From assembly GCF_000722875.1 (NCBI RefSeq), contig NZ_JFHR01000002.1, positions 62,001-126,000 on the forward strand: a stretch of DNA of 64,000 bases, read 5' to 3'. The stretch is from Sphingobium chlorophenolicum (GTDB lineage: Bacteria; Pseudomonadota; Alphaproteobacteria; Sphingomonadales; Sphingomonadaceae). The notes below the pieces were generated by a model. The model was not told the origin of the DNA and did not search any database. It worked only from the letters and a program-made list of their open reading frames with translations. Position 1 is the first letter of the stretch; each line of letters starts with the position of its first letter. The translations under genes were made by a program, and so were the position numbers. Positions 27,785-41,862 of the stretch are shown one piece after another.

Positions 27785-28777
27785 TTAGAAGGCCTTGCTG
27801 ATCGAGCAGGCCGCCGGACCCAGAATGACGACGAACAGCGTTGGCAGGATGAAGAGAATCAGCGGCACGGTCATGATCGCGGGCAGCCGAGCGGCCTTTT
27901 CCTCGGCGCGCATCATGCGTTCATGGCGGAACTCGGCGGACAGCACCCGCAGCGCCGACGCCAGCGGCGTGCCGTATTTTTCCGTCTGGATCATGGTCGT
28001 CACCACGCCCTTGACCGCGTCCAGCTTGACGCGGGTGGCCAGATTCTCGAACGCCATGCGCCGTTCGGTCAGGAAGCTGAGTTCGATGGCCGTCAGGTGG
28101 AATTCGTCGCCCAGTTCCGGATAGGCCTTGCCCAGTTCGCGGGCCACGCGGCTGAAGGCGGCGTCCACGGTCAGGCCCGCTTCGGCGCAGATCACCAGCA
28201 GGTCGAGCGCGTCGGGCAGCCCCTTGCGGATTGCGGCGGAACGCTTCTGGACCTTGTTGTCGATGAAGAGGTCGGGCGCCTTGTAGGACAGCAGCAGCGC
28301 CGCGGCAAAGGCCATGAAGCGCTTTGCCCCGCCCCATTCGGGGAAGATGCCCACCGCATAGAGCAGCAAAGCCGCCATGCCGCCGATCACGATCGGCAGG
28401 ATCATGCGGCCGAAGATCACAGCGACCGCCCAGTCCTTCGACCGGATGCCCGCTTGCGCCAGCTTGATCTGCGCTTCCTTGAGCTGGTCGTCCTGCAAAA
28501 CCTTCAGGCTGGACAGCATCGACCGCATCTGGTCGGTCGCCTGGTTCTTCTTCACCAGCTTGGCGCGGCGGCGGGCGGTGGAGGCGGTGATGCCCGCCTT
28601 CAACTGCTCGCGCCGTTCGTTCAGCGCCTTGACGCGCTTCGCCATCGGATCGCGCACGGTCATCACCGCATAGAGCGCGAACAGCGTCGCGAGCGTCGCA
28701 AGGGCGGCGAGCAGCGTGCCGAAATCCGTGGCGGTCAGACCGAACAGGGTGCCGGCGGGGACGGGAGCGGTTTCCAT
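27785..28777 (-). CDS. tadC: Tad pilus inner-membrane protein TadC (T2SS F family)
   Basis: 330 residues. Hydrophobic segments lie at the N-terminus (LLAALATLATLFALYAVM), in the middle (ILPIVIGGMAALLLYAVGI and FMAFAAALLLS) and at the C-terminus (TVPLILFILPTLFVVIL). The GspF-type helical domain lies between (LPDALDLLVICAEAGLTVDAAFSRVA...). TadB and TadC form the membrane platform of the Flp/Tad pilus machine. It is the last gene of the cpa operon, 13 bases after tadB. Confidence 0.92.
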   Translation of the reverse strand: METAPVPAGTLFGLTATDFGTLLAALATLATLFALYAVMTVRDPMAKRVKALNERREQLKAGITASTARRRAKLVKKNQATDQMRSMLSSLKVLQDDQLKEAQIKLAQAGIRSKDWAVAVIFGRMILPIVIGGMAALLLYAVGIFPEWGGAKRFMAFAAALLLSYKAPDLFIDNKVQKRSAAIRKGLPDALDLLVICAEAGLTVDAAFSRVARELGKAYPELGDEFHLTAIELSFLTERRMAFENLATRVKLDAVKGVVTTMIQTEKYGTPLASALRVLSAEFRHERMMRAEEKAARLPAIMTVPLILFILPTLFVVILGPAACSISKAF

Positions 28778-28790
28778 CTTGTCGGCTTCC

Positions 28791-29789
28791 TCAGATTTCG
28801 AAGTTGATCATCTGCGCCATGATGAAGGCGCCGATGCTCATCCAGATCATGCCGCCGATGCCGACGACCTGCATTGTCGAAAGGCCGAACAGTCCGACTG
28901 GATCGGGCGTGAAGAAGGGCGACATATAATCATAGTTGATGTAGCAAATCAGGCCGAAGACGGTGAACGGCAGCACGCCGATGATATAGGCCGACGCCTT
29001 CGATTCCGAGGACATGGCCCGGATCTTGAGCTTCATCTGAGAACGTTGGCGCAGCACGGTGGCCAGATTCGACAGCGTCTCCGCCAGGTTGCCGCCAGTT
29101 TCCCGCTGGATCGCCAAGCTGATCACGAAGAACTGGAATTCCGCCGTGCCCAGCCGGTCGGCGGTCTCCTGCAACGCCTGGTCCATGGTCTTGCCGATCT
29201 TGATGCGTTCGGTGATCAGCTTGAATTCCTCGCCCACCGGGCCGGGAACTTCGCTCGATACAACGCCTAGCGTTTCCGCGATGGGAAGGCCGGAGCGCAG
29301 GCCGCGGGTCAGCAGTTCCAGCGCATCGGGGAATTTGGCGGTGAACTGCTGCACGCGCTTGTTGATCAGGCGGCTGACCCACATGTGCGGCAGGCCAAGC
29401 CCGGCGGCCAGGCCCAGCATCACTGCGAACAGCGGCGCGAAGCCGCGCAGCATCAGCAGGGCGCACAGCACCAGGAATATGACGGCGCAGGAGGTCATAT
29501 ATTGGCTGACCGTCCATTTCTTGCCGGTCATGCGGATGCGCTTGGCCAGATTTTCCGGATTGGGCACCAGCGACACCAGCATGGTCGATTCCGTGCCGGT
29601 GGGGCGGTTGGAAATCGCCTTGCGCATGCGCGCTTCCAGGATCGCGTCGGCGGAATCGCTGTGCCGTCCCCGGATCAGCTCCATGCGGCGCTTGCGCGCC
29701 TTGTCGGGCGAGGGACCGGCAAAGGCCATGGCGATCAGGCCCAGCATCGTCGTGAGCAGCACCGCCATCAGGATCAAATTGCCGTTCAT
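28791..29789 (-). CDS. tadB: Tad pilus inner-membrane protein TadB (T2SS F family)
   Basis: 332 residues. An N-terminal TM helix, a pair in the middle (SQYMTSCAVIFLVLCALLML; FAVMLGLAAGLGLP) and a C-terminal pair surround a GspF-like domain with the usual LTRGLRSGLPIAETLGVVSSE and IQRETGGNLAETLSNLA motifs. It partners TadC. Only 71 bases separate it from cpaE, where the cpaF/tadA ATPase gene would normally sit. Confidence 0.92.
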   Translation of the reverse strand: MNGNLILMAVLLTTMLGLIAMAFAGPSPDKARKRRMELIRGRHSDSADAILEARMRKAISNRPTGTESTMLVSLVPNPENLAKRIRMTGKKWTVSQYMTSCAVIFLVLCALLMLRGFAPLFAVMLGLAAGLGLPHMWVSRLINKRVQQFTAKFPDALELLTRGLRSGLPIAETLGVVSSEVPGPVGEEFKLITERIKIGKTMDQALQETADRLGTAEFQFFVISLAIQRETGGNLAETLSNLATVLRQRSQMKLKIRAMSSESKASAYIIGVLPFTVFGLICYINYDYMSPFFTPDPVGLFGLSTMQVVGIGGMIWMSIGAFIMAQMINFEI

Positions 29790-29860
29790 ATGCCTGCCCG
29801 TTCCAAATCCGCTTCCGTCATGGGAGCCGCGCCACTTTACATCGGCGCGACCCGTACCGA

Positions 29861-31147
29861 TCAGGCCGAAGCCTTGTCCTTGCGGCGCGAGGGGATCATG
29901 CTCTTGAGATCGGTGATCTTGCCGAGCAGGGAATCGCCTTTTCTGGCCGAGGGCGCGCCGCTTTGCGCATCCTCGCCTTCCTCCGCCGCGCCCAGCACGC
30001 TGTCGAGCAGCATGGCGCAGGCCGCGCCGACCTTGCTGCCCTTGGCCGCTTCAGCCAGCGTCTTGCCCAGCTTCGCCGCCTGCGCCGCGATCTTGAGGTC
30101 GAAGGGGATAAGGATGTCGACCTTGCGCTCTATCGACTGTTCGAAATCCTTGCGGCTGATTTCCGGCGATCCCGGATGGACGCGGTTGGCGACCACCAGC
30201 ACGCGGGATTGCGGCGCGTTGGTCTTCAGCCAGGACAGGATGCGGATCGAATCCCGCGCCGCTGCCAGCGTCAGTTCGGTGACGACCACCGCGACATTCA
30301 CGTCGCTCATCAGATGCGGATGCTGGATCAGCATGCCGCGCGGCAGGTCAATGACGCTGCATTCGAAGGCGGCGCGGAATTCCTCCAGCAACTGGTAGAA
30401 TGCGCCGCCGTCGGTCAGCATCGGCTGGCTGATCGGCGCCTCGGCCGACAGGATCGCCAGATTGTCGCTGGCGCGGACCATGGCGCGTTCGATGAACAGC
30501 CCGTCGATGCGGCTGGGATTTTCGATGGCGTCGGTCAGGCCCCGGCCCGGCTCCAGATCCATCGCCAGCGCGTTGGTGCCGAAATGGACGTCCAGGTCAA
30601 GTAGGGCGGTCGGCCGGTTTTTCTTGTCGCTCAGCAACCAGGCGAGCGAGGTGGCGATGCTGGATGCGCCCACGCCGCCGCGCGTGCCGATGATCGCGGC
30701 CGTCATATGCGGGCGTTCAGGACCGGCGTCGCGGGGGGCGAAGAATACCGCTTGCGCCTGCGCCAGCGCGTCGCGCAACTGGTCGGCGCCGAAGGGCTTC
30801 AGCAGATAATCTTGAATGCCGCTGGCCAGCAGGTCGCGATAGAGGCGCACGTCATTGACCTGGCCCGCCGCGATGACGACCGTGCCGGGTTCGCACACTT
30901 CGGCCAGGCTGTTGATGTCGCCCAGCGGATCGCCGCTTTCCGACATGTCGATGAACAATATCTGGGGCGAGGCGGTGATCGACAGGCTCTGCACTGCGTT
31001 GCGCATGCCGCCCTTGCTGACCTTTTCGGGCGCCCAGCCCATTTCGGCGGCGACCACGCGCAACAGGTCGAAGCTGTGGTCGTCGCAGACGAAGGCATGG
31101 AAGGGATCACGCTGGCCGGATGCGCCGGGCTTCCAGGGTGCGTTCAT
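29861..31147 (-). CDS. cpaE: Pilus localisation/assembly ATPase CpaE (TadZ)
   Basis: 428 residues: an N-terminal receiver-like pseudo-domain (~15-130, FLLKPFGADQLRDAL style end) and a ParA/MinD-type ATPase domain with a deviant Walker A (GTRGGVGASSIATSLAWLL, ~150). The DLDVHFG and DLPRGMLIQHP motifs are those of CpaE/TadZ. It directs the Tad apparatus to a cell pole. The ATG lies one base past the cpaD stop, with GGGAGG inside the end of cpaD. It cannot replace CpaF, which belongs to the VirB11-type ATPases. Confidence 0.92.
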   Translation of the reverse strand: MNAPWKPGASGQRDPFHAFVCDDHSFDLLRVVAAEMGWAPEKVSKGGMRNAVQSLSITASPQILFIDMSESGDPLGDINSLAEVCEPGTVVIAAGQVNDVRLYRDLLASGIQDYLLKPFGADQLRDALAQAQAVFFAPRDAGPERPHMTAAIIGTRGGVGASSIATSLAWLLSDKKNRPTALLDLDVHFGTNALAMDLEPGRGLTDAIENPSRIDGLFIERAMVRASDNLAILSAEAPISQPMLTDGGAFYQLLEEFRAAFECSVIDLPRGMLIQHPHLMSDVNVAVVVTELTLAAARDSIRILSWLKTNAPQSRVLVVANRVHPGSPEISRKDFEQSIERKVDILIPFDLKIAAQAAKLGKTLAEAAKGSKVGAACAMLLDSVLGAAEEGEDAQSGAPSARKGDSLLGKITDLKSMIPSRRKDKASA

Positions 31148-31148
31148 G

Positions 31149-31805
31149 TCAATTGCCTCCCGACAGGGTCTTGAGGTCGCCGGAACCGGTCGGCGCCTTT
31201 TCGCGATAGGTGGAGATGGCGCGGTTCGACGTGGCGGTGCGCAGGTCGCTGTCGGTGGTCTGGCCGCGGACCAGATCCTCCGGATTGGCGATCATGGCGG
31301 CCAGGTTGCCGTTGACGCCGCAGCCGAAATTGGCGGATGCGCCCAATTGCTGGTCGGTTTCGGGCTTGTCTGACCAGTCGGGACAGCCCGGCACGCGCGC
31401 GGTGGCGCGGCGCACGATCAGGCGGACGGCGCCCTGCGGCGCGGACCCGGCGGCGGCCGAACTGTCTTCGCCCACCAGCATGCCATGGCGGGCGACGATA
31501 TCGGCTATGCCCTCCCGCAGGGCGGGGGCGTAATAGCTGGCGTCGGTGGCAAGGGCGACCTGGTCGCCATAGCCAAGGCCAATGGAGACGAACCAATCGT
31601 CCAGGCGACGGGCTTCCGACGGGGTCAGGCCGCCATCGGGACCGGCCTGCACGTCATAGGTGAAGGCGGTGTGGCTGACGACCGGCTGATGGATCGACTG
31701 CACGCCGCGATTGGCGCCCTGATCGGTCTGGCAGGCGGCGAGCGGCAGCACCATCAAGGCGAGAGCGCCGAAGCGGACGATATTTTTGCGAGACTGGAAA
31801 GTCAT
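31149..31805 (-). CDS. cpaD: Pilus assembly lipoprotein CpaD
   Basis: 218 residues. A lipoprotein signal with lipobox cysteine Cys25 (VLPLAAC). The mature part carries the CpaD-family sequence (LDDWFVSIGLGYGDQVAL, CPDWSDKPE, SANFGCGVNGNLAAMIANPEDLVRG). It is thought to assist the secretin in the outer membrane. It sits between cpaC (17 bases upstream) and cpaE. Confidence 0.92.
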   Translation of the reverse strand: MTFQSRKNIVRFGALALMVLPLAACQTDQGANRGVQSIHQPVVSHTAFTYDVQAGPDGGLTPSEARRLDDWFVSIGLGYGDQVALATDASYYAPALREGIADIVARHGMLVGEDSSAAAGSAPQGAVRLIVRRATARVPGCPDWSDKPETDQQLGASANFGCGVNGNLAAMIANPEDLVRGQTTDSDLRTATSNRAISTYREKAPTGSGDLKTLSGGN

Positions 31806-31822
31806 GTCTTTCGTCCTTCGGA

Positions 31823-33322
31823 TCAGAAGCTGAAGCCCGGCGCGGCGTCTTTCGAACGCTTGCCAGTGTCTCGGGCGGCGATGGGCGGCAGGGCGACCGA
31901 CGATTGCGGACCGGGCGCTGGCGCCGGACCGCCCGGCAGGCGGCTAGGCATCGGCGAGCGGGCGCCGCTGACGCCGTCCTGCATCTGCTGCAGAAACAGG
32001 CCCTGGCCCTCATTGGCGTTGCGGAAGCCGTCGGTCGGCAGGCGCACGTCGGACGCGTTCATCGGCTTCACCAGATAGGGGGTGACGACGATGACCAGTT
32101 CGGTCTCATGGCGCTGGAAACTGCGCGACTTGAACAGGCTGCCCAGGATCGGCAGGTTGCCGATGCCGGGCACTTTGTTGATATTGTTGGCGGTGTCGTT
32201 GTTGAGCAGGCCCGCGATCATGAAGGCCTGACCCGAACCCAGTTCCACGGTGGTTTCAGCCGTACGGCTCCTGAGCGCAGGCACGCTGGAGCTAACCGAG
32301 AAGTCCAGGCTGGACACGGTCGGACGAACACGCAGCGAGATGCGGCCATCGGCCAGCACGGTCGGCGTGAAGGCCAACTGCACGCCATATTGCTTGAACT
32401 CGATGCTGTTGCCCTGGGTGCCGTTGCTGACCGTATAGGGATATTCGCCGCCCGCGAGGAAGCTGGCGGTTTCACCCGACAGGGAGGTCAGGTTGGGCTG
32501 GGCAAGGGTGGTGGCGAGGCCGCTCGATTCCGCCAAATCCAGCACGGCGCCAAGGTCCAGGCCCAGCACGCGCGCGACACCGGCCAGGCTGTAGCCGCCA
32601 TCCGTGGTGAAGTTGAACGTTCCCCCACCGCCGCTGTTGAAGGTAATGGCGTCCCGCGTGCCGCCGCCGATGCCGCCAGCCCATTTGCCGCCGGTCAAAT
32701 CCTGCGACTTCCAGTTCATGCCGATCTTGTGGCCGACATCCTTGCTGACTTCGGCGATCTTGACCTGCAAATTGACCTGAAGCGGCGTCGCGGTGCGCAG
32801 GCGGCTCACCACCGTCACCTCCTTGCCGACGAAGGCCTGGGTCAGCCGTTCGGCTTCCGCCGCGTCTTCCGGCGCGGCGATGGTGCCGGTCAGCAGGACC
32901 ATGCCGTTCATCTTGTTGACCGCGATCTCCGCGTTCGGCATCGCCAGCTTCAGCATGTCGTCGATGCTGGTCAGATTGTTGCCGACGCGCACCGTGCCGG
33001 AAAACAGCACCTTGCCGTTGGTCGCCGTGGCGAAGACGGTGGTTTCGCCCGCCTTCTTCGCGATCAGGTAAAGCTGGTTCTGCGAACGGACATGGACATC
33101 GACCACGTCGGGATCGCCGATCACCACGTCCGACATCTTGGCGGGCAGGTTGATGACCTTGCTGCCGCCCACGGAGAGCAGGATCGCATTGTCCTGCATG
33201 GAGGCGGGCGCGGCGTTGAGCGCGGCGGTCGGCGCAGCGGCGGCGGCAACCGCCAGGCCGAGCGCGATGGCCGGGCTGATCAGCGGCCGGGCCGCGCCGG
33301 AGTGAATGTTGAACCCCTTCAT
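31823..33322 (-). CDS. cpaC: Tad secretin CpaC (RcpA)
   Basis: The outer-membrane channel of the Tad pilus, 499 residues. Signal peptide, an N-terminal pilus-assembly domain (SKVINLPAKMSDVVIGDPDVVDV), a BON/secretin N-domain (MNGMVLLTGTIAAPEDAAEAE), and a C-terminal secretin domain (~235-440) with FLAGGEYPY, QYGVQLAFTPTVL and VPGIGNLPILGSLFKSRSF. The tail after ~445 is Pro/Gly-rich. The gene lies one base after the cpaB stop. Confidence 0.94.
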   Translation of the reverse strand: MKGFNIHSGAARPLISPAIALGLAVAAAAAPTAALNAAPASMQDNAILLSVGGSKVINLPAKMSDVVIGDPDVVDVHVRSQNQLYLIAKKAGETTVFATATNGKVLFSGTVRVGNNLTSIDDMLKLAMPNAEIAVNKMNGMVLLTGTIAAPEDAAEAERLTQAFVGKEVTVVSRLRTATPLQVNLQVKIAEVSKDVGHKIGMNWKSQDLTGGKWAGGIGGGTRDAITFNSGGGGTFNFTTDGGYSLAGVARVLGLDLGAVLDLAESSGLATTLAQPNLTSLSGETASFLAGGEYPYTVSNGTQGNSIEFKQYGVQLAFTPTVLADGRISLRVRPTVSSLDFSVSSSVPALRSRTAETTVELGSGQAFMIAGLLNNDTANNINKVPGIGNLPILGSLFKSRSFQRHETELVIVVTPYLVKPMNASDVRLPTDGFRNANEGQGLFLQQMQDGVSGARSPMPSRLPGGPAPAPGPQSSVALPPIAARDTGKRSKDAAPGFSF

Positions 33323-33323
33323 C

Positions 33324-34361
33324 TTACTTCCCCCCGACCGGAACGACGGTCACGCTGGTTCCGCGAGCGACGCGGATCACTGGCCCCTGGCCGGCAATGG
33401 CTCCGCCAACCGGCACGCCCATGGTCAGACCCCCAGCGCCCATGCTCTGCAAAGGTTTGGCGGGGACGCTGCTGCGCTGATAGCGCGAGACGTCGGCGCC
33501 TGTGGAATAAGTGCCGCCCTTGTCGACCGGACGGGCCGCCAGGCTGGCCAGCAGCTTCTTTTCGGCATTGGGATTGTTGGCGGCGGACAGGTCGACATCG
33601 CTGCCCGCAATGGCCGCATCCAGTTCCGAACTATTGTCGGCCAGCGAACGCAGCGAAAGCGAGAGCGAGCCGATGGTCTGTGCCACCGCGATCTTCTCCG
33701 CGATCTTGGGCGTCACTTCAATGGTGACGTTGGAATAGGTTTGCACGACCGGCTTGCCGTCGTCGCCCAGCGCGTCCATGCGCTGGTCGGTGGCGAGCAC
33801 GCGCAGGTTGCGCAGGATGGTTTCCGATACCTTCAGAGGTTCACCGTCGCCGCCGCCGCTGACGCTCTGCGTCAGCATCAGGTCGACGCGGTCGCCCGGA
33901 AAGACAAAGCCCGCAACCGAATTCTGCGCCGATACCGGCACGGTCACGGCGCGCATGCCGGGCCCCAGGGCGGCGGCCAGGAAGCCGCGCTCGCCCGGCT
34001 TGATCACCGAACCCAGCGTCATCGGCTGACCGGCGGAAATGGCGGTGCGGATGACGCTACCCACCAGCTTCTGCGGATCGGACTGGCCCTTCAGATAATA
34101 GGCCTGCTCGACAAGCTCCTTGGGCCAGGGCTGAAAGCGAAAGCTTTCTGCGTCCAATATGGTGCCCACCGGCAACGCCTTGGTCGCGACCAGCACATGG
34201 GGCTGGTCCGCCTCGACCGGCATGGACGATGCGCTTGCCTGCGGCGCGCTCGACGAACTCAGCATGTTGCGTGCAAGCAAGGCTGTAGTGACCGCTATGA
34301 TCAGCGCCCCCACCAGCAGCACGATCTTCTTGGCATCCATGATGAAATTCGCCTCCCTCAA
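33324..34361 (-). CDS. cpaB: Pilus assembly protein CpaB (RcpC)
   Basis: 345 residues. One N-terminal TM anchor (KIVLLVGALIIAVTTALLA), a SAF domain (HVLVATKALPVGTILDAESF) and an RcpC/CpaB domain (VTVPVSAQNSVAGFVFPGDRVDLML; VLATDQRMDAL). It is a periplasmic component of the Tad machine that contacts the secretin. It starts 31 bases after cpaA. Confidence 0.93.
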   Translation of the reverse strand: MREANFIMDAKKIVLLVGALIIAVTTALLARNMLSSSSAPQASASSMPVEADQPHVLVATKALPVGTILDAESFRFQPWPKELVEQAYYLKGQSDPQKLVGSVIRTAISAGQPMTLGSVIKPGERGFLAAALGPGMRAVTVPVSAQNSVAGFVFPGDRVDLMLTQSVSGGGDGEPLKVSETILRNLRVLATDQRMDALGDDGKPVVQTYSNVTIEVTPKIAEKIAVAQTIGSLSLSLRSLADNSSELDAAIAGSDVDLSAANNPNAEKKLLASLAARPVDKGGTYSTGADVSRYQRSSVPAKPLQSMGAGGLTMGVPVGGAIAGQGPVIRVARGTSVTVVPVGGK

Positions 34362-34392
34362 TCAGACGAGTTGCGCCTGAGCCCCCGTTTAT

Positions 34393-34866
34393 TCACGCAA
34401 ATTGGTTAATATATCGTTCGCCAAGCAACCACAGCGCTGCGAACGAAATGGCGATGCCATAGGGGATTTGCGGCTGCCCCAGCCGCCGGGTCATGCGATG
34501 GTGCACGACGGTCACGATGGTGACGATGCCCCCCAGCACCGCCATCAGCATCAGCATCGACAAGGTCGCCTGCCACGGGAACCACAGCGCCAGCGCGCCG
34601 AGCAGCTTCACATCGCCGCCGCCCATGCATCCCAGGGCGAACAGCGCGGCAAAGACGATGAACACGATCAGCGCCACCAGCAACTGCACCGCCATGCCCG
34701 GCCAGAGCGGCAGGCCGCAGGCCAGCCACCAGAGCGGCGCCAGCGCGGCAACCGTCAGGTTCAGCCGGTTGGAGATGATGCGTGACCGCAGATCGGTGAC
34801 CGAAGCCACGATCAGCAGCAGTGCCAGGGCGCCGATCAGCGCCATTCTGAAAATATCCCCCATCAT
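34393..34866 (-). CDS. cpaA: Prepilin peptidase CpaA (A24 family)
   Basis: 157 residues, about five to six TM helices. Both catalytic aspartates of A24 peptidases are visible: DLRSRIISN (Asp25) and GGGDVKLLG (GxGD, about Asp85). It cleaves Flp-type prepilins at the inner membrane. A much longer upstream frame on this strand is antisense to the hydrolase gene and is not real. Start is ATG 34866 or 34863; a third choice, ATG 34845, has GGGGA at better spacing. First gene of the minus-strand tad operon; no flp pilin gene accompanies it. Confidence 0.9.
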   Translation of the reverse strand: MMGDIFRMALIGALALLLIVASVTDLRSRIISNRLNLTVAALAPLWWLACGLPLWPGMAVQLLVALIVFIVFAALFALGCMGGGDVKLLGALALWFPWQATLSMLMLMAVLGGIVTIVTVVHHRMTRRLGQPQIPYGIAISFAALWLLGERYINQFA

Positions 34867-35904: not shown

Positions 35905-37004
35905 CAAGGCCCGACATCGTCATCGTCGGCGGCGGGATCGCCGGGGCCAGCCTTGGCGCGGTGCTGGCGGAGCAGGCCAGCGTGCTGATGCTGGAGATGG
36001 AGGCGAACGCCGGTTACCACGCCACCGGGCGGGCGGTCTCCTTCTGGGAGGAAACCTATGGCGGGCTGGCGGTCCAGCCGCTGACCACCGCGTCGGGGCC
36101 GATGCTGTCGTCGCCCGATCCGGAATTTTCCAGGTCCTCCTTCCTGTCGCCGCGCCGGACGCTGCATATCGGGCGGCCGGACGATGCGGCGGCCCGCGAC
36201 CGGCTGCTGGAGGAATTTGACGGCAAGGTGGCCTTGCACGGGGTCGATCCGGCAATGCTGGTGCCGGGGCTGCGCCCGGAATGGACGCTGGGCGTGCTGG
36301 AGCCGGGGGTGTGCGACATCGACGTGGCGGCGCTGCACCAAGCCTGGCTGCGGCGGTTCCGACGGCTGGGCGGGCAGGTCCGGTTGGCGACGGCCCTGCG
36401 GGGCGCAGAGGCGCGAGACGGCGGCTGGCGCATCGAAACGGATGGGGGGGTGATCGATTGCGGCCTGATCGTCAATGCGGCGGGCGCCTGGGCGGACGAT
36501 GTCGCCGTGGCATGCGGCGTGGAACCCATCGGCATCGCGCCGCTGCGGCGGACGGTGGTGCAATTGCGCGTGCCCACCATGCCCTCGGCCGATCTGCCGC
36601 TGATCATGGACATCTGCTCGCAATTTTATTTCAAGCCGGAGGGGGAGGGGCGCGTGTGGCTGACTCCTCATGATGAAGAACCGTCGCTCCCGTGCGACGC
36701 CGCGCCCGAAGAGTTGGCAGTGGCGGAGGCGATCACCCGGTTCGAGGCGGTGGTGGATTGGCCGGTTGCGGCGGTGGAGCGCAAATGGGCGGGTCTGCGC
36801 AGCTTCTCTCGCGACCGGGCGCCGGTCTATGGGTTCGATTCCGCGACGCGGGGCTTCTTCTGGTTCGCGGGACAGGGCGGCTTCGGCATCCAGACCTCCC
36901 CCGCCGCCGCTTTGCTGGGGGCCGCTATCCTCAAGGGAGAGGCCTTGCCGCCCGCCGTCGCGAAAATCGACCCGACGCCTTATTCTCCTGCCCGTTTCAG
37001 CTAG
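35901..37004 (+). CDS. FAD-dependent oxidoreductase (DAO family)
   Basis: 367 residues. N-terminal FAD-binding motif IVIVGGGIAGASLGAVLAE (residues 5-23), FAD-domain motif LIVNAAGAWADDVA (~190) and C-terminal FWFAGQGGFGIQTSPAAALL. It looks like the glycine/D-amino-acid oxidase group, possibly a D-arginine dehydrogenase-like enzyme; the substrate is not certain. It is translationally coupled to the hydrolase upstream. Its last 8 bases overlap the end of the convergent flippase gene. Confidence 0.87.
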   Translation: MTRPDIVIVGGGIAGASLGAVLAEQASVLMLEMEANAGYHATGRAVSFWEETYGGLAVQPLTTASGPMLSSPDPEFSRSSFLSPRRTLHIGRPDDAAARDRLLEEFDGKVALHGVDPAMLVPGLRPEWTLGVLEPGVCDIDVAALHQAWLRRFRRLGGQVRLATALRGAEARDGGWRIETDGGVIDCGLIVNAAGAWADDVAVACGVEPIGIAPLRRTVVQLRVPTMPSADLPLIMDICSQFYFKPEGEGRVWLTPHDEEPSLPCDAAPEELAVAEAITRFEAVVDWPVAAVERKWAGLRSFSRDRAPVYGFDSATRGFFWFAGQGGFGIQTSPAAALLGAAILKGEALPPAVAKIDPTPYSPARFS

Positions 37005-38322
37005 CGTGCCGCCCCACGGCTTTTCGGCTCGCCAGCCCCATCATCGCAAAGCCCGCGATGGCCGCTATGATGTTCGCGCTCGCCGCCCCCACCGTTCCAT
37101 AGACGGGTAGCAGCGCCGCCTGCATCCCCAGCAGCAGCGCGGTGGAAATCACCGTGATGCGCAGCGACAGGCTTGCCCGGTCGGTCGCCATCAGCAGCGG
37201 GCGGTAACTCACCCCGACCAGGTCGATGCAGGCCGCGATGCCCAGCAGCAGCAGCAGCGGATAGGCCGGAAGAAATTCCCTGCCCGCGATCAGCCCCAGC
37301 AACGGATGCCCGATGGTCAGGATCAGCGCGATGATCGCGGCGCCCGCGATCATCGCCAGCCGGTTCGTCCGCCGGAACAGCGTGCCCAGCGCCTCATGGC
37401 CATGGCTCGAATGGGTTCGGCTCAATTCCACGAAGATGCTGCGCGATAGCAGGCCGGAAATCTTCGTCAGCGAATTGGCGAGCTGATTGGCCAGCCGGTA
37501 AAGCCCCGCCCCGGCCGGACCGACGAACAGGCCCACCACCAGCACGGCCACCTGCTGCCCCACGGAGGAAAGGGTGGTCTGCAAATTGGTGGCGGTAAGG
37601 AAGCTGACGATGCCCGGATTTTCCGCCCGCGCATCCCAGGCGCTGCCCGCCCGCCAGTTCCCCAGCTTCTCGCCCCCCAAGCGCAGCGCCAGCCACCAAT
37701 AGCTGACGGCGCACAGCAGTTCCGCCGCGCCCCAGGCGATCAGGAAGCCGGTTATGCCGGGCATCAGTATCCAGGCCAGCCCCGCGCCGATCATGCGCCC
37801 CACGGGAATCATCGTTTCGGCAAAGGCACCTGAATCGAACCGGTCGAACAGCCGCAGCACGCCCATCGGGCTGGACCGGATGGTGATCATCATCACCATG
37901 CAGAAGATCCAGGCCTGCCACCCCATTTCGGCCGACAATTGCATCAACGGCCCGAAGACGAGGATGATGAACCCGGCGACCAGCCCGCCCGCAACCGCCG
38001 AACCAAGGTCGATCAGGATGCAGAAACGCAGCACCCGGTTCAGCGCGTCGCCATTGCCGGACGCCAGATGCGGCTGACCATAGCGCACGACGATCTGCCA
38101 ACTATCGAAGCTCACCAGCGTCTGGATAAGGCCGGATGCGCTCAGCACCAGCGCGAACCGGCCGAAATCCGCTACGCCCAATGTCCGAGTGACGATGGCC
38201 AGATAGGCCAGGCTCAACACCGCGCCCACGCCCTTGCCGCCCAGCAGCCAACCGGTATTCGCCAGAATGCGGGCGAAGCCTTCCTGAGCGCTACCCAATT
38301 CGCGCTTGCTGTCCCCTGACAT
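36997..38322 (-). CDS. Polysaccharide/oligosaccharide flippase (Wzx/MATE-like)
   Basis: 441 residues, almost entirely hydrophobic with about 12-14 TM helices. It opens with RILANTGWLLGGKGVGAVL and LAYLAIVTRTLGVADFG, typical of Wzx/PST flippases. It would move a lipid-linked glycan or similar substrate across the inner membrane. I placed the start at ATG 38322 because AAAGG lies six bases before it; an upstream ATG would add nine residues. It is divergent from the nucleotidyltransferase gene at 38436 and borders the cytidylyl/phosphotransferase genes, which suggests a shared envelope pathway. Confidence 0.86.
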   Translation of the reverse strand: MSGDSKRELGSAQEGFARILANTGWLLGGKGVGAVLSLAYLAIVTRTLGVADFGRFALVLSASGLIQTLVSFDSWQIVVRYGQPHLASGNGDALNRVLRFCILIDLGSAVAGGLVAGFIILVFGPLMQLSAEMGWQAWIFCMVMMITIRSSPMGVLRLFDRFDSGAFAETMIPVGRMIGAGLAWILMPGITGFLIAWGAAELLCAVSYWWLALRLGGEKLGNWRAGSAWDARAENPGIVSFLTATNLQTTLSSVGQQVAVLVVGLFVGPAGAGLYRLANQLANSLTKISGLLSRSIFVELSRTHSSHGHEALGTLFRRTNRLAMIAGAAIIALILTIGHPLLGLIAGREFLPAYPLLLLLGIAACIDLVGVSYRPLLMATDRASLSLRITVISTALLLGMQAALLPVYGTVGAASANIIAAIAGFAMMGLASRKAVGRHAS

Positions 38323-38435
38323 TCCGGCCTTTCGATGCGACGCCTTCAATGGCGCGCGGGCCTATCTAGGATCGGGCAGGGTGTGATGCAACACACCCTG
38401 TCCATCCGCCCGTCTTTGCTTTAATGCCCCCGGCC

Positions 38436-39203
38436 ATGACCATTTCGAAAGCCATCATCCTTTCCGCGGGCCAGGGTTCGCGCCTGTTGCCGCTGACCCG
38501 CGACGTGCCCAAATGCATGATCGACTTCAACGGCCGCACCCTGATCAGTTGGCAGGTCGCGGCTCTGGTGGCGAATGGCGTGACCGACATCGTCGTCGTC
38601 ACCGGCTTCCGCACCGAACGGGTGGAGGATCATGCGCTGCAACTCTATCGCGACACTGGCGCGCGCATCCGCACCGTCTTCAATCCCTTCTTCCAGGTGG
38701 CGGATAACCTTGGCACCTGCTGGATCGTGCGGGAGGAGATGGACCGCGACTTCATCATCCTGAACGGCGACACCATCGTCTCGGACGAGATCGTGGGCAA
38801 GCTGATCGCGGAGGCGCAGGACGCCATCACCGTCACCGTGGACGTCAAGCAGGACGGCTATGACGATGACGACATGAAGGTGAACCGGGACGAGACGGGC
38901 CGCCTCCACGCCATCGGCAAGCGGCTGCTGCCGCATGACACCAATGCCGAATCCATCGGCATGCTGGCTTTCCGGGGCGAAGGCCCCGCGATCTTCCGAA
39001 ACCAGATCGACCAGATGATGCGCACGCCCGAAGGCGTGGAGCGCTGGTATCTGCGCGCCATCGACATCATCGCCAAGGGCAACCGCGTCGGCACCGTCTC
39101 CATCGAGGGACTGGACTGGCAGGAAGTCGACTTCCCGCAGGATGTCGAGGCGGCGAAGGCGCTCACTGCCCGCTGGCTGGCCGAGGGCCGTTACGCGAAA
39201 TAA
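38436..39203 (+). CDS. Sugar/alcohol-phosphate nucleotidyltransferase (LicC-like)
   Basis: 255 residues, NTP_transferase fold. The N-terminal nucleotide loop AIILSAGQGSRLLPLT is followed by PKCMIDFNGRTLISWQ, and an acidic metal motif (LNGDTIVSDEIV) lies near 110. The NLGTCWIVREEM element is typical of phosphocholine/inositol-phosphate cytidylyltransferases. The likely reaction is CTP + alcohol phosphate to CDP-alcohol, which the CDP-alcohol phosphotransferase at 39616 could then use. ATG 38424 is an alternative start, four residues longer. The end overlaps the convergent HIT gene by 13 bases. Confidence 0.83.
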   Translation: MTISKAIILSAGQGSRLLPLTRDVPKCMIDFNGRTLISWQVAALVANGVTDIVVVTGFRTERVEDHALQLYRDTGARIRTVFNPFFQVADNLGTCWIVREEMDRDFIILNGDTIVSDEIVGKLIAEAQDAITVTVDVKQDGYDDDDMKVNRDETGRLHAIGKRLLPHDTNAESIGMLAFRGEGPAIFRNQIDQMMRTPEGVERWYLRAIDIIAKGNRVGTVSIEGLDWQEVDFPQDVEAAKALTARWLAEGRYAK

Positions 39204-39619
39204 GGCTTGAGCCAGCCGGTCAGCATGGCGATCTGCTCCGGCGAGAGCTTCGCCGCGCTGCCGAGGTCAGGCTGTCCCGGCCATCCGGCATCGGGGACCA
39301 GGATGCCCGCATGTTCGCGGCTGCCCTCATAACGGGGCAGCACATGGAAATGGACATGCGGGTCCACCATCATCAGCATCAGATAATTGATCTTCTCATA
39401 GCCCACTGCCTGAGCAAGCGCGCTTTCGATGGCCTTCGTCACTGTCGCCAGTTCGGCATGCGCCTCCGCCGGAAGGTCGCCAAAGGCCATGGCGTCGGAT
39501 TTGGCCGCCAGCACCAGCGCCCCCAGAGTAGGCTGCGCGGGGCGCAGCAGCACCACCCAATGCCCGAAATCCGCTATCAAAGTGGCGGGAAAGCCGAATT
39601 TCTCGATGGTCGCGTTCAT
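39191..39619 (-). CDS. HIT-family hydrolase
   Basis: 142 residues. It has the histidine triad signature HVHFHVLPRY preceded by MVDP, about residue 90. HIT proteins hydrolyse or transfer nucleotidyl groups from nucleoside phosphates or dinucleotides. Its start codon overlaps the stop of the CDP-alcohol phosphotransferase gene (ATGA), so it may clear a nucleotide by-product (CMP-type adduct) of that pathway. The specific substrate is unknown. The 3' end overlaps the convergent nucleotidyltransferase gene. Confidence 0.87.
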   Translation of the reverse strand: MNATIEKFGFPATLIADFGHWVVLLRPAQPTLGALVLAAKSDAMAFGDLPAEAHAELATVTKAIESALAQAVGYEKINYLMLMMVDPHVHFHVLPRYEGSREHAGILVPDAGWPGQPDLGSAAKLSPEQIAMLTGWLKPYFA

Positions 39620-40728
39620 GCCGTCGCCTCCATCCAACTGACGATGGGCCGTCCGGCGCGCTTAACGCCATAGGCTTGCAACAGCCGCACCGCATGGACG
39701 ACCAGCGAGATGACGGTCCACCAGGCAAGAGCAATCAGTCCGACATCCGGCCGCCCGATGAGCAACGCGACGAACAGAATCACCATATTGGGATTGCGCC
39801 GCGCCGTGATCAGTCGGAACCGGCTATCGAACCGCTCCCAGACATGGATGTCCATCCCGAAATCCTTGATGAACATTCCCTCGATAAGCCGTTGCAGCAC
39901 ATAGCCCGCGATCACCGCCGCCATCACCAGCGCGAAGCTCTGCGTCGACAGCGCCAGCCCCCAGGCCGACAGCCCCACGCCCCAGAAATACCACCAGAAG
40001 GGCGGATGGATCAGGTCGACCCCATGGTCCGCGATGTTGCCCCATTTGGACGATGTGACGGTGCATCGGGCGAGCTTCCCGTCCACCGTATCCAGCACCA
40101 TGAAGACGAACCCGGCGAGCAGGCCGGTCCAGTACAGCCCCTGCGCAAACAAATAGGTCGCCACCACGCACAGCGTTGCGCCGATGGCTGTCACCATATT
40201 GGGCGTCATCCCGATGGATGCGGCCAGCCGCGTCAGCCACAGCGCCAGTTCGGGCCAGAGATATTTCGTCAGCAGGTCGGTCACACCCTTATAGGCGCCG
40301 AAATAGCTGTGCCGCTCGATCTCCCGGCGGGTGGCGGGGGTCAGGCGCTGGATGAAGGGGCAATCCAGCTTCCGCAACTGCCGGTTATAGATTTGCGGTC
40401 CGGTGCGGTAATCGATGACGGTCAAATTCTCGCCATGCCGGGCGATGTCGTCAGGGGTCGGATCGATCCCGGCGGGCAGATGCGCCATGACCAGCGCATC
40501 CCCGTCGACGACCACCGTGCAGGGATGGGCCAGCACATGGCGCAACCACACCGGATCGAAGACATAATCCAGATTGACGTGCAGCCGCGCGCTGCTCGCC
40601 CTGTCGTCCGCGGCCAGTCCCTCCGCCCGCGCCAGCCGGTGCAGGCGTTCGGCATTGGTCATGCCCCAGAGCAGGGCGGGATTGTCGCCGATCAGCGACA
40701 GGCTTGGCGGGGAGGAGAGTTGGTTCAT
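39616..40728 (-). CDS. CDP-alcohol phosphotransferase with extra N-terminal domain
   Basis: 370 residues. The catalytic motif of the CDP-alcohol phosphotransferase family is complete (DTVDGKLAR, then G and two Asp in GNIADHGVD at the right spacing, residues ~216-241). Several TM helices are present. Before it lies a ~125-residue soluble region (LIGDNPALLWGMTNAERLHR..., VVVDGDALVMAHLP) that looks like a worn-down nucleotidyltransferase domain, recalling the fused inositol-phosphate cytidylyltransferase/phosphotransferases. It would join an alcohol phosphate from a CDP carrier to another alcohol, making a phosphodiester. It sits between the TagF-like gene (12 bases upstream) and the HIT gene. 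Confidence 0.83.
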   Translation of the reverse strand: MNQLSSPPSLSLIGDNPALLWGMTNAERLHRLARAEGLAADDRASSARLHVNLDYVFDPVWLRHVLAHPCTVVVDGDALVMAHLPAGIDPTPDDIARHGENLTVIDYRTGPQIYNRQLRKLDCPFIQRLTPATRREIERHSYFGAYKGVTDLLTKYLWPELALWLTRLAASIGMTPNMVTAIGATLCVVATYLFAQGLYWTGLLAGFVFMVLDTVDGKLARCTVTSSKWGNIADHGVDLIHPPFWWYFWGVGLSAWGLALSTQSFALVMAAVIAGYVLQRLIEGMFIKDFGMDIHVWERFDSRFRLITARRNPNMVILFVALLIGRPDVGLIALAWWTVISLVVHAVRLLQAYGVKRAGRPIVSWMEATA

Positions 40729-40740
40729 GATCGCCTGCTC

Positions 40741-41862
40741 TTATCGTCTGGCCTTTTCAAGGAAAGCGCAAATCGCGTCCGCGCCGCGCCTCGCCGCGCC
40801 ATGGGGATCGCCGCCGACCGATTCCGCCACCCGCTTCCGTTGCGCTTCGGCGTAAAATCCGTGTCGCTCCCTCGCCCGGTCCAGCGCGCCGGGCAAGGAG
40901 GCAAGGTCATCCAGCACGTCGCCCAAGGTCCAGAACAGATAGTCGGGATCGTCCCGCCAGGACACGCCATTGGCATTGAGGAACAGGCAAGGCCGAGGAA
41001 AGGCTAGAAATTCGTAAACCTGGCTGCTGACATCGCCCAGATAGATGTCGGCACCGCTGGTGTAGCTCATGTCGAACAGCCGGTCAGAATCGAGATCGAT
41101 CAGAATCTTGCCCGGCTCCGCCAGGGCCATGACATCATCCTTCGCCGCTTGAGATGCCTCAGCGAACAGCCGGACATGCGGCGCGACCACCAGATTGTAG
41201 CGGTCCTGCCGCCGGAACCATTCGATCAGGCCAGGTCCAAACCTGTCCCATGAGGAAAGCGAGCGGCGGAAATGCGGCGCATACAGGACTGTCGGCCGAT
41301 CATTGTCGAACAGGCGGCCGCGCTGCTTCTGCATGCGCAGCATCAGGTCGAGCTTCACATAACCATTGGTGGCATAATGGCCGGGACGAATGGTGCCCGC
41401 CTCCAGCAATCGTCGCTCGCTCTTTTCCCCCGCAACCAGCACGAAATCGAAATGGCGGTCGCGCGGGTCGAGCATGATCGCGCGATCGCCCGCGCCATGA
41501 GGGGTGAAGATCAGTTTCGTCCGGCGCGGCAGGAAGTGACGGATGGCTGTCGTGGTCCGTTCCGGAACGACGATCGCGTCGAAGCGCCGCAAATATGGCA
41601 GGGCGCCGATCAGTGTGGGAATACGAGGATTGCGGCCGAATTTCATCCGGCGGGCGATGGCGGCCGGACCGGAGCGGCCCAGAATCCTGACCTGGGGCTG
41701 GAAATCGGGATAGATATCCGCCAGCCGCGCCAGGATCGGCAAATGATCCGCGCTCGATACCGCGATTTCGGGAGAGTGGCCCATGGCGGCCATTTCCGCC
41801 GCAATCGGCAGGGCATGGAACAGATGGTGCGGCTCGCCGATGAAAAGGAAAAGGATGCGCAT
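40741..41862 (-). CDS. CDP-glycerol glycerophosphotransferase-like (TagF-like) protein
   Basis: 373 residues, GT-B-like fold. The C-terminal half shows features of the glycerophosphotransferase family: FTPHGAGDR (~120), VLYAPHFRRS (~193, cf. YAPT-R), and YLGDVSSQVYEFLAFPRPCLF (the D-SS...EFL...P motif, ~275-295). Such enzymes transfer glycerol-phosphate or similar units from CDP carriers, as in teichoic acids and some Gram-negative capsules. No TM anchor is visible. First gene of a three-gene minus-strand operon with the CDP-alcohol phosphotransferase and HIT genes. A capsule-type glycosyltransferase function is an alternative reading. Confidence 0.75.
   Translation of the reverse strand: MRILFLFIGEPHHLFHALPIAAEMAAMGHSPEIAVSSADHLPILARLADIYPDFQPQVRILGRSGPAAIARRMKFGRNPRIPTLIGALPYLRRFDAIVVPERTTTAIRHFLPRRTKLIFTPHGAGDRAIMLDPRDRHFDFVLVAGEKSERRLLEAGTIRPGHYATNGYVKLDLMLRMQKQRGRLFDNDRPTVLYAPHFRRSLSSWDRFGPGLIEWFRRQDRYNLVVAPHVRLFAEASQAAKDDVMALAEPGKILIDLDSDRLFDMSYTSGADIYLGDVSSQVYEFLAFPRPCLFLNANGVSWRDDPDYLFWTLGDVLDDLASLPGALDRARERHGFYAEAQRKRVAESVGGDPHGAARRGADAICAFLEKARR

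What the first reader, a model, noticed from the sequence alone, without database searches (positions are those of the whole stretch)
36997..41862. Cytidylyl-activated alcohol-phosphate transfer cluster (possible new envelope polymer or lipid head-group pathway)
Five genes in a tight block: Wzx-like flippase, LicC-like nucleotidyltransferase, HIT hydrolase, CDP-alcohol phosphotransferase with a worn nucleotidyltransferase-like N-domain, and a TagF-like glycerophosphotransferase. Seen in sequence: motifs for each family and operon overlaps (ATGA between phosphotransferase and HIT; 12-base gap to the TagF-like gene). Family knowledge: such enzymes make CDP-alcohols, join them by phosphodiester bonds and polymerise polyol phosphates. 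Inference: together they could make a teichoic-acid-like or phospho-polyol decoration, or an anionic lipid head group, which would be unusual for a Gram-negative with sphingolipids.
Basis: partly seen in the sequence, partly recalled or inferred. Interest (0 to 1): 0.62.

Follow-up and report, generated by a model that had tools for sequence, protein, structure and literature searches.

The report
Sphingolipid head-group genes with swap cassette
These five genes look like part of the machinery that puts charged phosphoglycerate groups on a bacterial sphingolipid, of a kind that helps Caulobacter survive without LPS, plus an exchangeable enzyme cassette suggesting that the finished lipid differs between strains.

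Summary
The five genes are real, at the stated places, and conserved, but the core is not a new pathway. Nucleotidyltransferase (NT), CDP-alcohol phosphotransferase (CAP), HIT protein and flippase match the Caulobacter ceramide-diphosphoglycerate (CPG2) route. NT has 12 of the 13 residues named for CpgD (CTP:phosphoglycerate cytidylyltransferase), matched by position, not by alignment, as no Caulobacter sequence was available. CAP fits CC_1159/CpgA by motif and gene order. The same contig holds serine palmitoyltransferase, LptF/LptG-type permeases and distant homologues of genes that stand at the CerS, CpgB and CpgC positions elsewhere. No inositol-phosphate synthase or TagD was found. Two things look new. 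(1) HIT, whose Caulobacter slot (CC_1157) is called 'probably unrelated', occurs in 28 of 196 Sphingomonadales genomes, all with CAP and NT; in 11 it is not near either. Outside the order the link is looser (11 of 23 loci). (2) The TagF-like gene and CAP's nucleotidyltransferase-like N-domain travel together as an allele between Sphingobium and Sphingopyxis; the rest of CAP follows genus, so there is a recombination junction inside CAP. The head group is therefore probably polymorphic. Whether TagF-like lengthens it is untested; no chemistry was seen.

The parts
40741..41862 (-). TagF-like GT-B transferase (373 aa), first gene of the TagF-CAP-HIT run; exchangeable part
   Evidence: PF04464 23.7 bits vs cut-off 22.1; 13 of 24 aligned sequences, window included, match it at E 0.01; profile hits Cps3D (7e-5) and TarL (0.005) in the PDB; GT-B model, TagF 3l7i among the best, UDP-GlcNAc 2-epimerases as good
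40294..40728 (-). CAP residues 1-145: degenerate nucleotidyltransferase-like N-domain, exchanged together with TagF-like
   Evidence: fold, signature lost, allele concordance and trees
40290..40377 (-). approximate recombination junction in CAP (residues 118-146; position not sharp)
   Evidence: switch from allele-wise to genus-wise identity; AU tests
39616..40293 (-). CAP residues 146-370 and stop: membrane CDP-alcohol phosphotransferase domain, motif DTVDGKLAR...GNIADHGVD from residue 213; matches CC_1159/CpgA by family and gene order
   Evidence: PF01066, motif pattern recalled and found, gene order in L179-L182 and L194-L213
39191..39619 (-). HIT-superfamily protein, start overlaps CAP stop (ATGA); by gene order the counterpart of CC_1157
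   Evidence: PF01230; H90 and H92 invariant in 16 aligned sequences; co-occurrence 28 of 28 in the order
38424..39203 (+). NT: CpgD-type CTP:phosphoglycerate cytidylyltransferase (predicted)
   Evidence: 12 of 13 residues named for CpgD found at matching positions; best PDB sequence hit LicC
36997..38322 (-). Wzx/MOP-type flippase, 34% identical to the protein beside SPT in Roseomonas (compare the potential flippase CC_1166)
   Evidence: PF01943, blastp

Best explanation
The block is the second-unit module of a ceramide-phosphoglycerate head-group pathway in a Sphingobium-like sphingomonad. Predicted course: ceramide is phosphorylated by a CpgB-type kinase and turned into ceramide phosphoglycerate with CpgC, from genes elsewhere on the same contig. 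NT makes CDP-glycerate from CTP and phosphoglycerate. CAP, in the membrane, transfers phosphoglycerate from it to the lipid, giving CPG2. The flippase and LptF/LptG-type permeases move the lipid outwards. HIT probably cleaves a nucleotide-diphosphate intermediate (leftover CDP-glycerate or a nucleotide-capped lipid), perhaps sharing the job of the phosphoesterase CC_1158. The TagF-like transferase, matched to CAP's N-domain, adds a strain-specific group or further units. Shown here: gene content, homology, residues, co-occurrence, gene order, recombination. Inferred: every reaction.
For: CpgD residues G12, R16, K26, N90, T93, N110, G111, D112, M147, K161, S170 and W201 (PMC13228409, PMC12275187) have counterparts in NT; in 17 aligned sequences, window included, 11 are invariant and T93 is T or S. 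Same contig C2: SPT over its NCBIfam cut-off (795 vs 670 bits), LptG and LptF, and homologues of the genes at the CerS (42%), CpgB (29%) and CpgC (40%) positions of other clusters; NT2 (compare CC_1153) on contig C19. Of 23 CAP loci outside the order, nearby are CpgB-type in 18, CpgC-type 17, LptF 15, LptG 15, MPE 15, ACS 14, SPT 13, CerS-type 12, NT2 12, HIT 11, NT 7. L213 reads ACS-SPT-CpgC-CpgB-CAP-MPE-HIT-LptF-LptG-CerS-NT2-NT, which fits the published gene roles from CC_1165 to CC_1152. Annotated Roseomonas and Diaphorobacter plasmids agree. In 196 genomes NT (31) and CAP (36) share 30.
Against: No Caulobacter protein could be aligned; CerS, CpgB, CpgC and HIT are named from gene order and published domain descriptions. 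The CpgD residues were matched by offset (4 to 7, rising and falling), and the 13th named residue, Thr88 (a backbone contact), is Ala in NT. Homologues at the CpgB and CpgC positions are distant. LptF/LptG pass the ordinary LPS-export models, so they may be the housekeeping pair. Of 23 class loci only 7 have NT and 11 HIT nearby; 7 of the 15 with MPE lack HIT nearby, four of them from one family; several loci are cut by contig ends. HIT is on 14 of the 16 plasmids with CAP, not on the two Pseudomonas ones, and one Arthrobacter plasmid has a 35% HIT match without CAP. Six of 36 CAP genomes lack NT at E 1e-40 and eight lack HIT; one of the six (G172) has an NT-like gene below the threshold. No CC_1158-type phosphoesterase was sought genome-wide. 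TagF-like is not in the Caulobacter list.
Confidence: 0.8

Rival explanations
1. A di-myo-inositol-phosphate or inositol-lipid pathway: NT and CAP are the split halves of IPCT/DIPPS and make CDP-inositol and an inositol phosphodiester.
For: NCBIfam NF041135 (IPCT/DIPPS) is hit by both NT (56 bits) and CAP (29 bits); the CAP model resembles 4mnd.
Against: Scores far below the cut-off of 580. No Inos-1-P synthase match in this genome, while 72 of 196 genomes have one; only 6 of 36 CAP genomes do. In several Sphingomonadales a longer CAP homologue lies beside MIPS. Uptake of inositol was not tested.
Confidence: 0.05
2. A teichoic-acid-like glycerol-phosphate or O-antigen polymer unrelated to sphingolipids, with TagF-like as polymerase and the flippase as Wzx.
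For: PF04464 match, Cps3D and TarL as profile hits; Wzx-like flippase.
Against: No TagD: the three PF01467 proteins found read as CoaD, NadD and RibF (identified by eye). TagF-like is in 21 of 36 CAP genomes and 39 of 160 others. The core sits in ceramide-type clusters elsewhere.
Confidence: 0.08
3. Phosphocholine or phosphonate head group: NT is a LicC- or PntC-type enzyme.
For: Best PDB profile hits are 1jyk (CTP:phosphocholine cytidylyltransferase) and 6pd1 (NTase-aminotransferase fusion, PntC by recall).
Against: The only PEP mutase family match reads as isocitrate lyase (by eye). Counterparts of CpgD M147 and K161, which contact phosphoglycerate, are present.
Confidence: 0.05

Closest known systems
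Ceramide diphosphoglycerate (CPG2) pathway of Caulobacter crescentus, CC_1152-CC_1168 (CpgA-D)
   Same: NT, CAP, HIT position, flippase; SPT, LptF/LptG, NT2 and homologues at the CerS, CpgB and CpgC positions in the same genome; order contiguous in relatives
   Different: Scattered in this genome, as the 2024 paper reports for S. wittichii; no metallophosphoesterase in the block; extra TagF-like gene in the CAP-HIT run, exchanged together with the CAP N-domain
AF2299 and IPCT-DIPPS of Archaeoglobus (CDP-alcohol phosphotransferases with nucleotidyltransferase domain)
   Same: Two-domain architecture and fold of CAP
   Different: 14-16% identity; CAP N-domain without the nucleotidyltransferase signature; no inositol-phosphate synthase found in the genome
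TagF/TarL teichoic acid polymerases and Cps3D-type capsule polymerase
   Same: PF04464 and GT-B fold of the TagF-like gene
   Different: 373 aa only, weak score, no TagD found, sits with CPG2-type genes

Membership tests
CPG2 phosphosphingolipid pathway | CpgD-type cytidylyltransferase with the published ligand and catalytic residues | tested here: met
   12 of 13 named residues, by offset; Thr88 (backbone contact) is Ala
CPG2 phosphosphingolipid pathway | CDP-alcohol phosphotransferase (CC_1159/CpgA) | tested here: met
   family and motif, gene order
CPG2 phosphosphingolipid pathway | Serine palmitoyltransferase in the genome | tested here: met
   NF047603 795 vs 670 bits
CPG2 phosphosphingolipid pathway | CpgB, CpgC, CC_1153 and CerS in the genome | tested here: inconclusive
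   homologues of the genes at those positions, 29-80% identical, orthology to Caulobacter not tested
CPG2 phosphosphingolipid pathway | Direct orthology with the Caulobacter proteins | not testable with these tools
   no named Caulobacter sequence was fetched
CPG2 phosphosphingolipid pathway | Phosphoesterase CC_1158 | not tested
   not sought genome-wide; reported missing in S. wittichii
CPG2 phosphosphingolipid pathway | CPG/CPG2 lipid made | not testable with these tools
   needs lipid mass spectrometry
IPCT/DIPPS inositol pathway | Inositol-1-phosphate synthase in the genome | tested here: not met
   no PF01658 match; the same search found it in 6 of 14 control genomes
IPCT/DIPPS inositol pathway | NCBIfam cut-off 580 bits | tested here: not met
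   56 and 29 bits
TagF teichoic acid polymerase | PF04464 gathering score | tested here: met
   23.7 vs 22.1 bits
TagF teichoic acid polymerase | TagD-type CDP-glycerol supply | tested here: not met
   three PF01467 proteins, none TagD by eye
TagF teichoic acid polymerase | Fold specific to TagF rather than GT-B in general | tested here: inconclusive

The most novel reading that the evidence does not exclude
The TagF-like enzyme, docking on CAP's degenerate nucleotidyltransferase domain, uses CDP-glycerate to extend ceramide phosphoglycerate into a chain: a sphingolipid-anchored, teichoic-acid-like polymer. Its building cassette (TagF + CAP N-domain, or a GT4 in its place) is exchanged between genera like an O-antigen locus and gives sphingomonads strain-specific surfaces.
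Probability: 0.2. Interest if true: 0.8.

Novelty: new variant of a known kind. Interest (0 to 1): 0.55.

Why it matters
CPG2 helps Caulobacter live without LPS (PMC12275187) and is the presumptive target of polymyxin there (PMC11324152). The roles of CpgA and CpgC and the order of the last steps are open questions in those papers. This work gives a genome-wide argument, within Sphingomonadales, that the HIT gene belongs to the pathway, and a natural domain-swap experiment showing which half of the phosphotransferase goes with a variable partner enzyme. Both can be tested in Sphingobium or Caulobacter laboratory strains.

Tried and rejected
Inositol: no MIPS match. Phosphonate: the PEP mutase match reads as isocitrate lyase. 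CDP-glycerol by TagD: none. LicC naming: best PDB sequence hit, but no proof of substrate. Papers holding 'CDP-alcohol phosphotransferase' and 'Sphingomonadales': none. 'CC_1157' with 'HIT family' in print: only PMC11324152, whose main text has no word beginning with 'hit'; its supplement could not be read. NT2 as part of the CAP-specific core: it is in 133 of 196 genomes at E 1e-6; CpgC-type in 132 (E 1e-5) and CpgB-type in 127 (E 1e-10), so these are wider than CAP. A CpgD structure in the PDB copy: not among the 11 hits. Strict HIT requirement outside the order: not supported (HIT near 11 of 23 CAP loci; on 14 of 16 CAP plasmids). L053 breaks the allele rule (N-domain 69% like the window, GT4 in the TagF slot). 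One search used 46 of 81 sequences (window plus 80 loci); loci without TagF-like, without NT nearby, or outside Sphingobium and Sphingopyxis were left out; groups were set by TagF allele and record title; L037, L045 and L072 are MAGs without genus name, placed by similarity; the window counts as Sphingobium because G188, called 'same genus', has the contig length of L035 (S. wenxiniae). CAP was counted at E 1e-30 (36 genomes); at E 0.001 the search lists 102, mostly other CDP-alcohol phosphotransferases by coverage.
Full report
OBSERVATION. TagF-like, CAP and HIT run together on the minus strand (12-base gap, ATGA overlap); NT is on plus and meets HIT tail to tail; the flippase is on minus.

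CONSERVATION. A scan of one genome per species found 213 stretches encoding a CAP relative and kept the best 80 as loci. Within 10 kb, tblastn finds HIT in 78, NT in 63, TagF-like in 61 and this flippase in 36 of 80. In 196 genomes of the order, CAP (E below 1e-30, my threshold) is in 36, NT (E 1e-40) in 31, HIT (E 1e-15) in 28. NT and CAP share 30; all 28 HIT genomes have both; Fisher p values are 4.6e-27 or smaller but ignore relatedness. In 11 of the 28, HIT is more than 10 kb from, or on another contig than, both CAP and NT; these 11 come from few lineages, and in G023 the contigs are too short to exclude linkage. TagF-like (E 1e-8) is in 60 genomes, 21 of the 36 with CAP and 39 of the other 160.

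WHAT IT IS. Sixteen annotated plasmid records carry a CAP relative; 16 carry NT and 14 of them HIT. In the four regions opened, CAP stands with NT2, a lipid kinase, LptF/LptG and a metallophosphoesterase, and in R. marmotae with an SPT-like aminotransferase, acyl carrier protein and fatty acyl-AMP ligase. This led to the Caulobacter phosphosphingolipid papers. PMC11324152 (abstract, section 8 part 1 of 2, sections 9 and 13, and passages) assigns CC_1162-1165 and CC_1154 to ceramide, CC_1160 and CC_1161 to CPG, CC_1159, CC_1158, CC_1153 and CC_1152 to CPG2, calls CC_1157 and CC_1167 probably unrelated, and notes that Z. mobilis lacks both CC_1159 and CC_1157. PMC12275187 (abstract, results, discussion) shows that CpgD (CCNA_01210, CC_1152 by numbering) makes CDP-glycerate. 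PMC13228409 (abstract, results, discussion) names its residues. Twelve of thirteen have counterparts in the window NT, the phosphoglycerate contacts M147 and K161 included; Thr88, a backbone contact, does not. PMC10331486 (passages) describes CpgB as a ceramide kinase; PMC9386255 (passages) describes sphingomonad SPT genes. Other papers were seen in listings only.

GENOME. On the window's own contig lie a CerS-position homologue, LptG, LptF and a CpgB-position homologue (C2:188-6494), and a CpgC-position homologue and SPT (C2:49402-53769); NT2 is on C19. The CpgC-type protein looks like Tam41 to me by recall only; Pfam and NCBIfam gave nothing. In the class, CAP was found in 24 of 385 genomes, own included. 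For all 23 others the surroundings were fetched, several cut by contig ends, with the counts given under Best explanation. HIT and MPE: both in 8, MPE alone in 7, HIT alone in 3, neither in 5 of 23, which allows the idea that they can replace each other. L213 shows the twelve genes searched for in the Caulobacter order, with HIT between MPE and LptF, the slot of CC_1157; acyl carrier protein and CerR were not searched for.

STRUCTURE. CAP: membrane domain with intact motif and a nucleotidyltransferase-fold N-domain as in AF2299. TagF-like: GT-B, TagF among the best matches but not alone; invariant H122, H197 and H229 recall TagF's catalytic histidines, not tested.

MOSAIC. Two TagF-like alleles (about 37% identical) occur in both Sphingobium and Sphingopyxis. 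CAP residues 1-117 are 66-72% identical between genera within an allele and 30-50% within a genus between alleles; NT is 91-94% within a genus against 87% between, and CAP 211-370 does not follow the allele either. Two qualifications: allele A in Sphingobium is only the window and L035, and over CAP 146-210 these two are closer to Sphingopyxis (86%) than to other Sphingobium (79%), so the junction is not sharp. Groups were defined by TagF, so only the CAP result is independent. Trees agree: the N-domain puts allele A together (support 100) and rejects the genus grouping (p-AU 2e-7); the rest of CAP puts the Sphingopyxis type together (97) and rejects the allele (p-AU 0.003) (quick trees, groups named). 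GT4 genes fill or flank the TagF slot in L053, L093 and L098 (L098 was typed by clustering only); L053 keeps an allele-A-like N-domain and is an exception.

READING. The core reactions are inferred from Caulobacter. The new elements are HIT as a probable pathway member and the exchangeable TagF + N-domain cassette. The mechanism of both is inference.

Noticed in passing
G007:C25:67789-70732; similar in G117, G155: Inositol-1-phosphate synthase next to a CAP homologue in a long open frame (508-580 aa) and a second CAP homologue in a frame of 303-403 aa: a possible inositol-lipid cluster.
   Followed up: no
L157:6231-7802, L162:5347-6912: MobA-like NT2 with an extra HAD-like half (by eye) beside a TagF-like gene in genomes without CAP.
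   Followed up: partly
L179 (pDCB2, conjugative IncP), L181 (pPNP1): Head-group genes of the phosphosphingolipid type on plasmids, one near mercury resistance genes, one near sul1 and intI1.
   Followed up: no
L179, L197, L201, L202, L206, L208, L212: A second CAP (32-37% identical to the window's) inside the cluster, between the Lpt permeases and the CerS position.
   Followed up: no
window 27785-34866: Genes that look like a Tad/Flp pilus operon next to the finding, identified by eye only.
   Followed up: no
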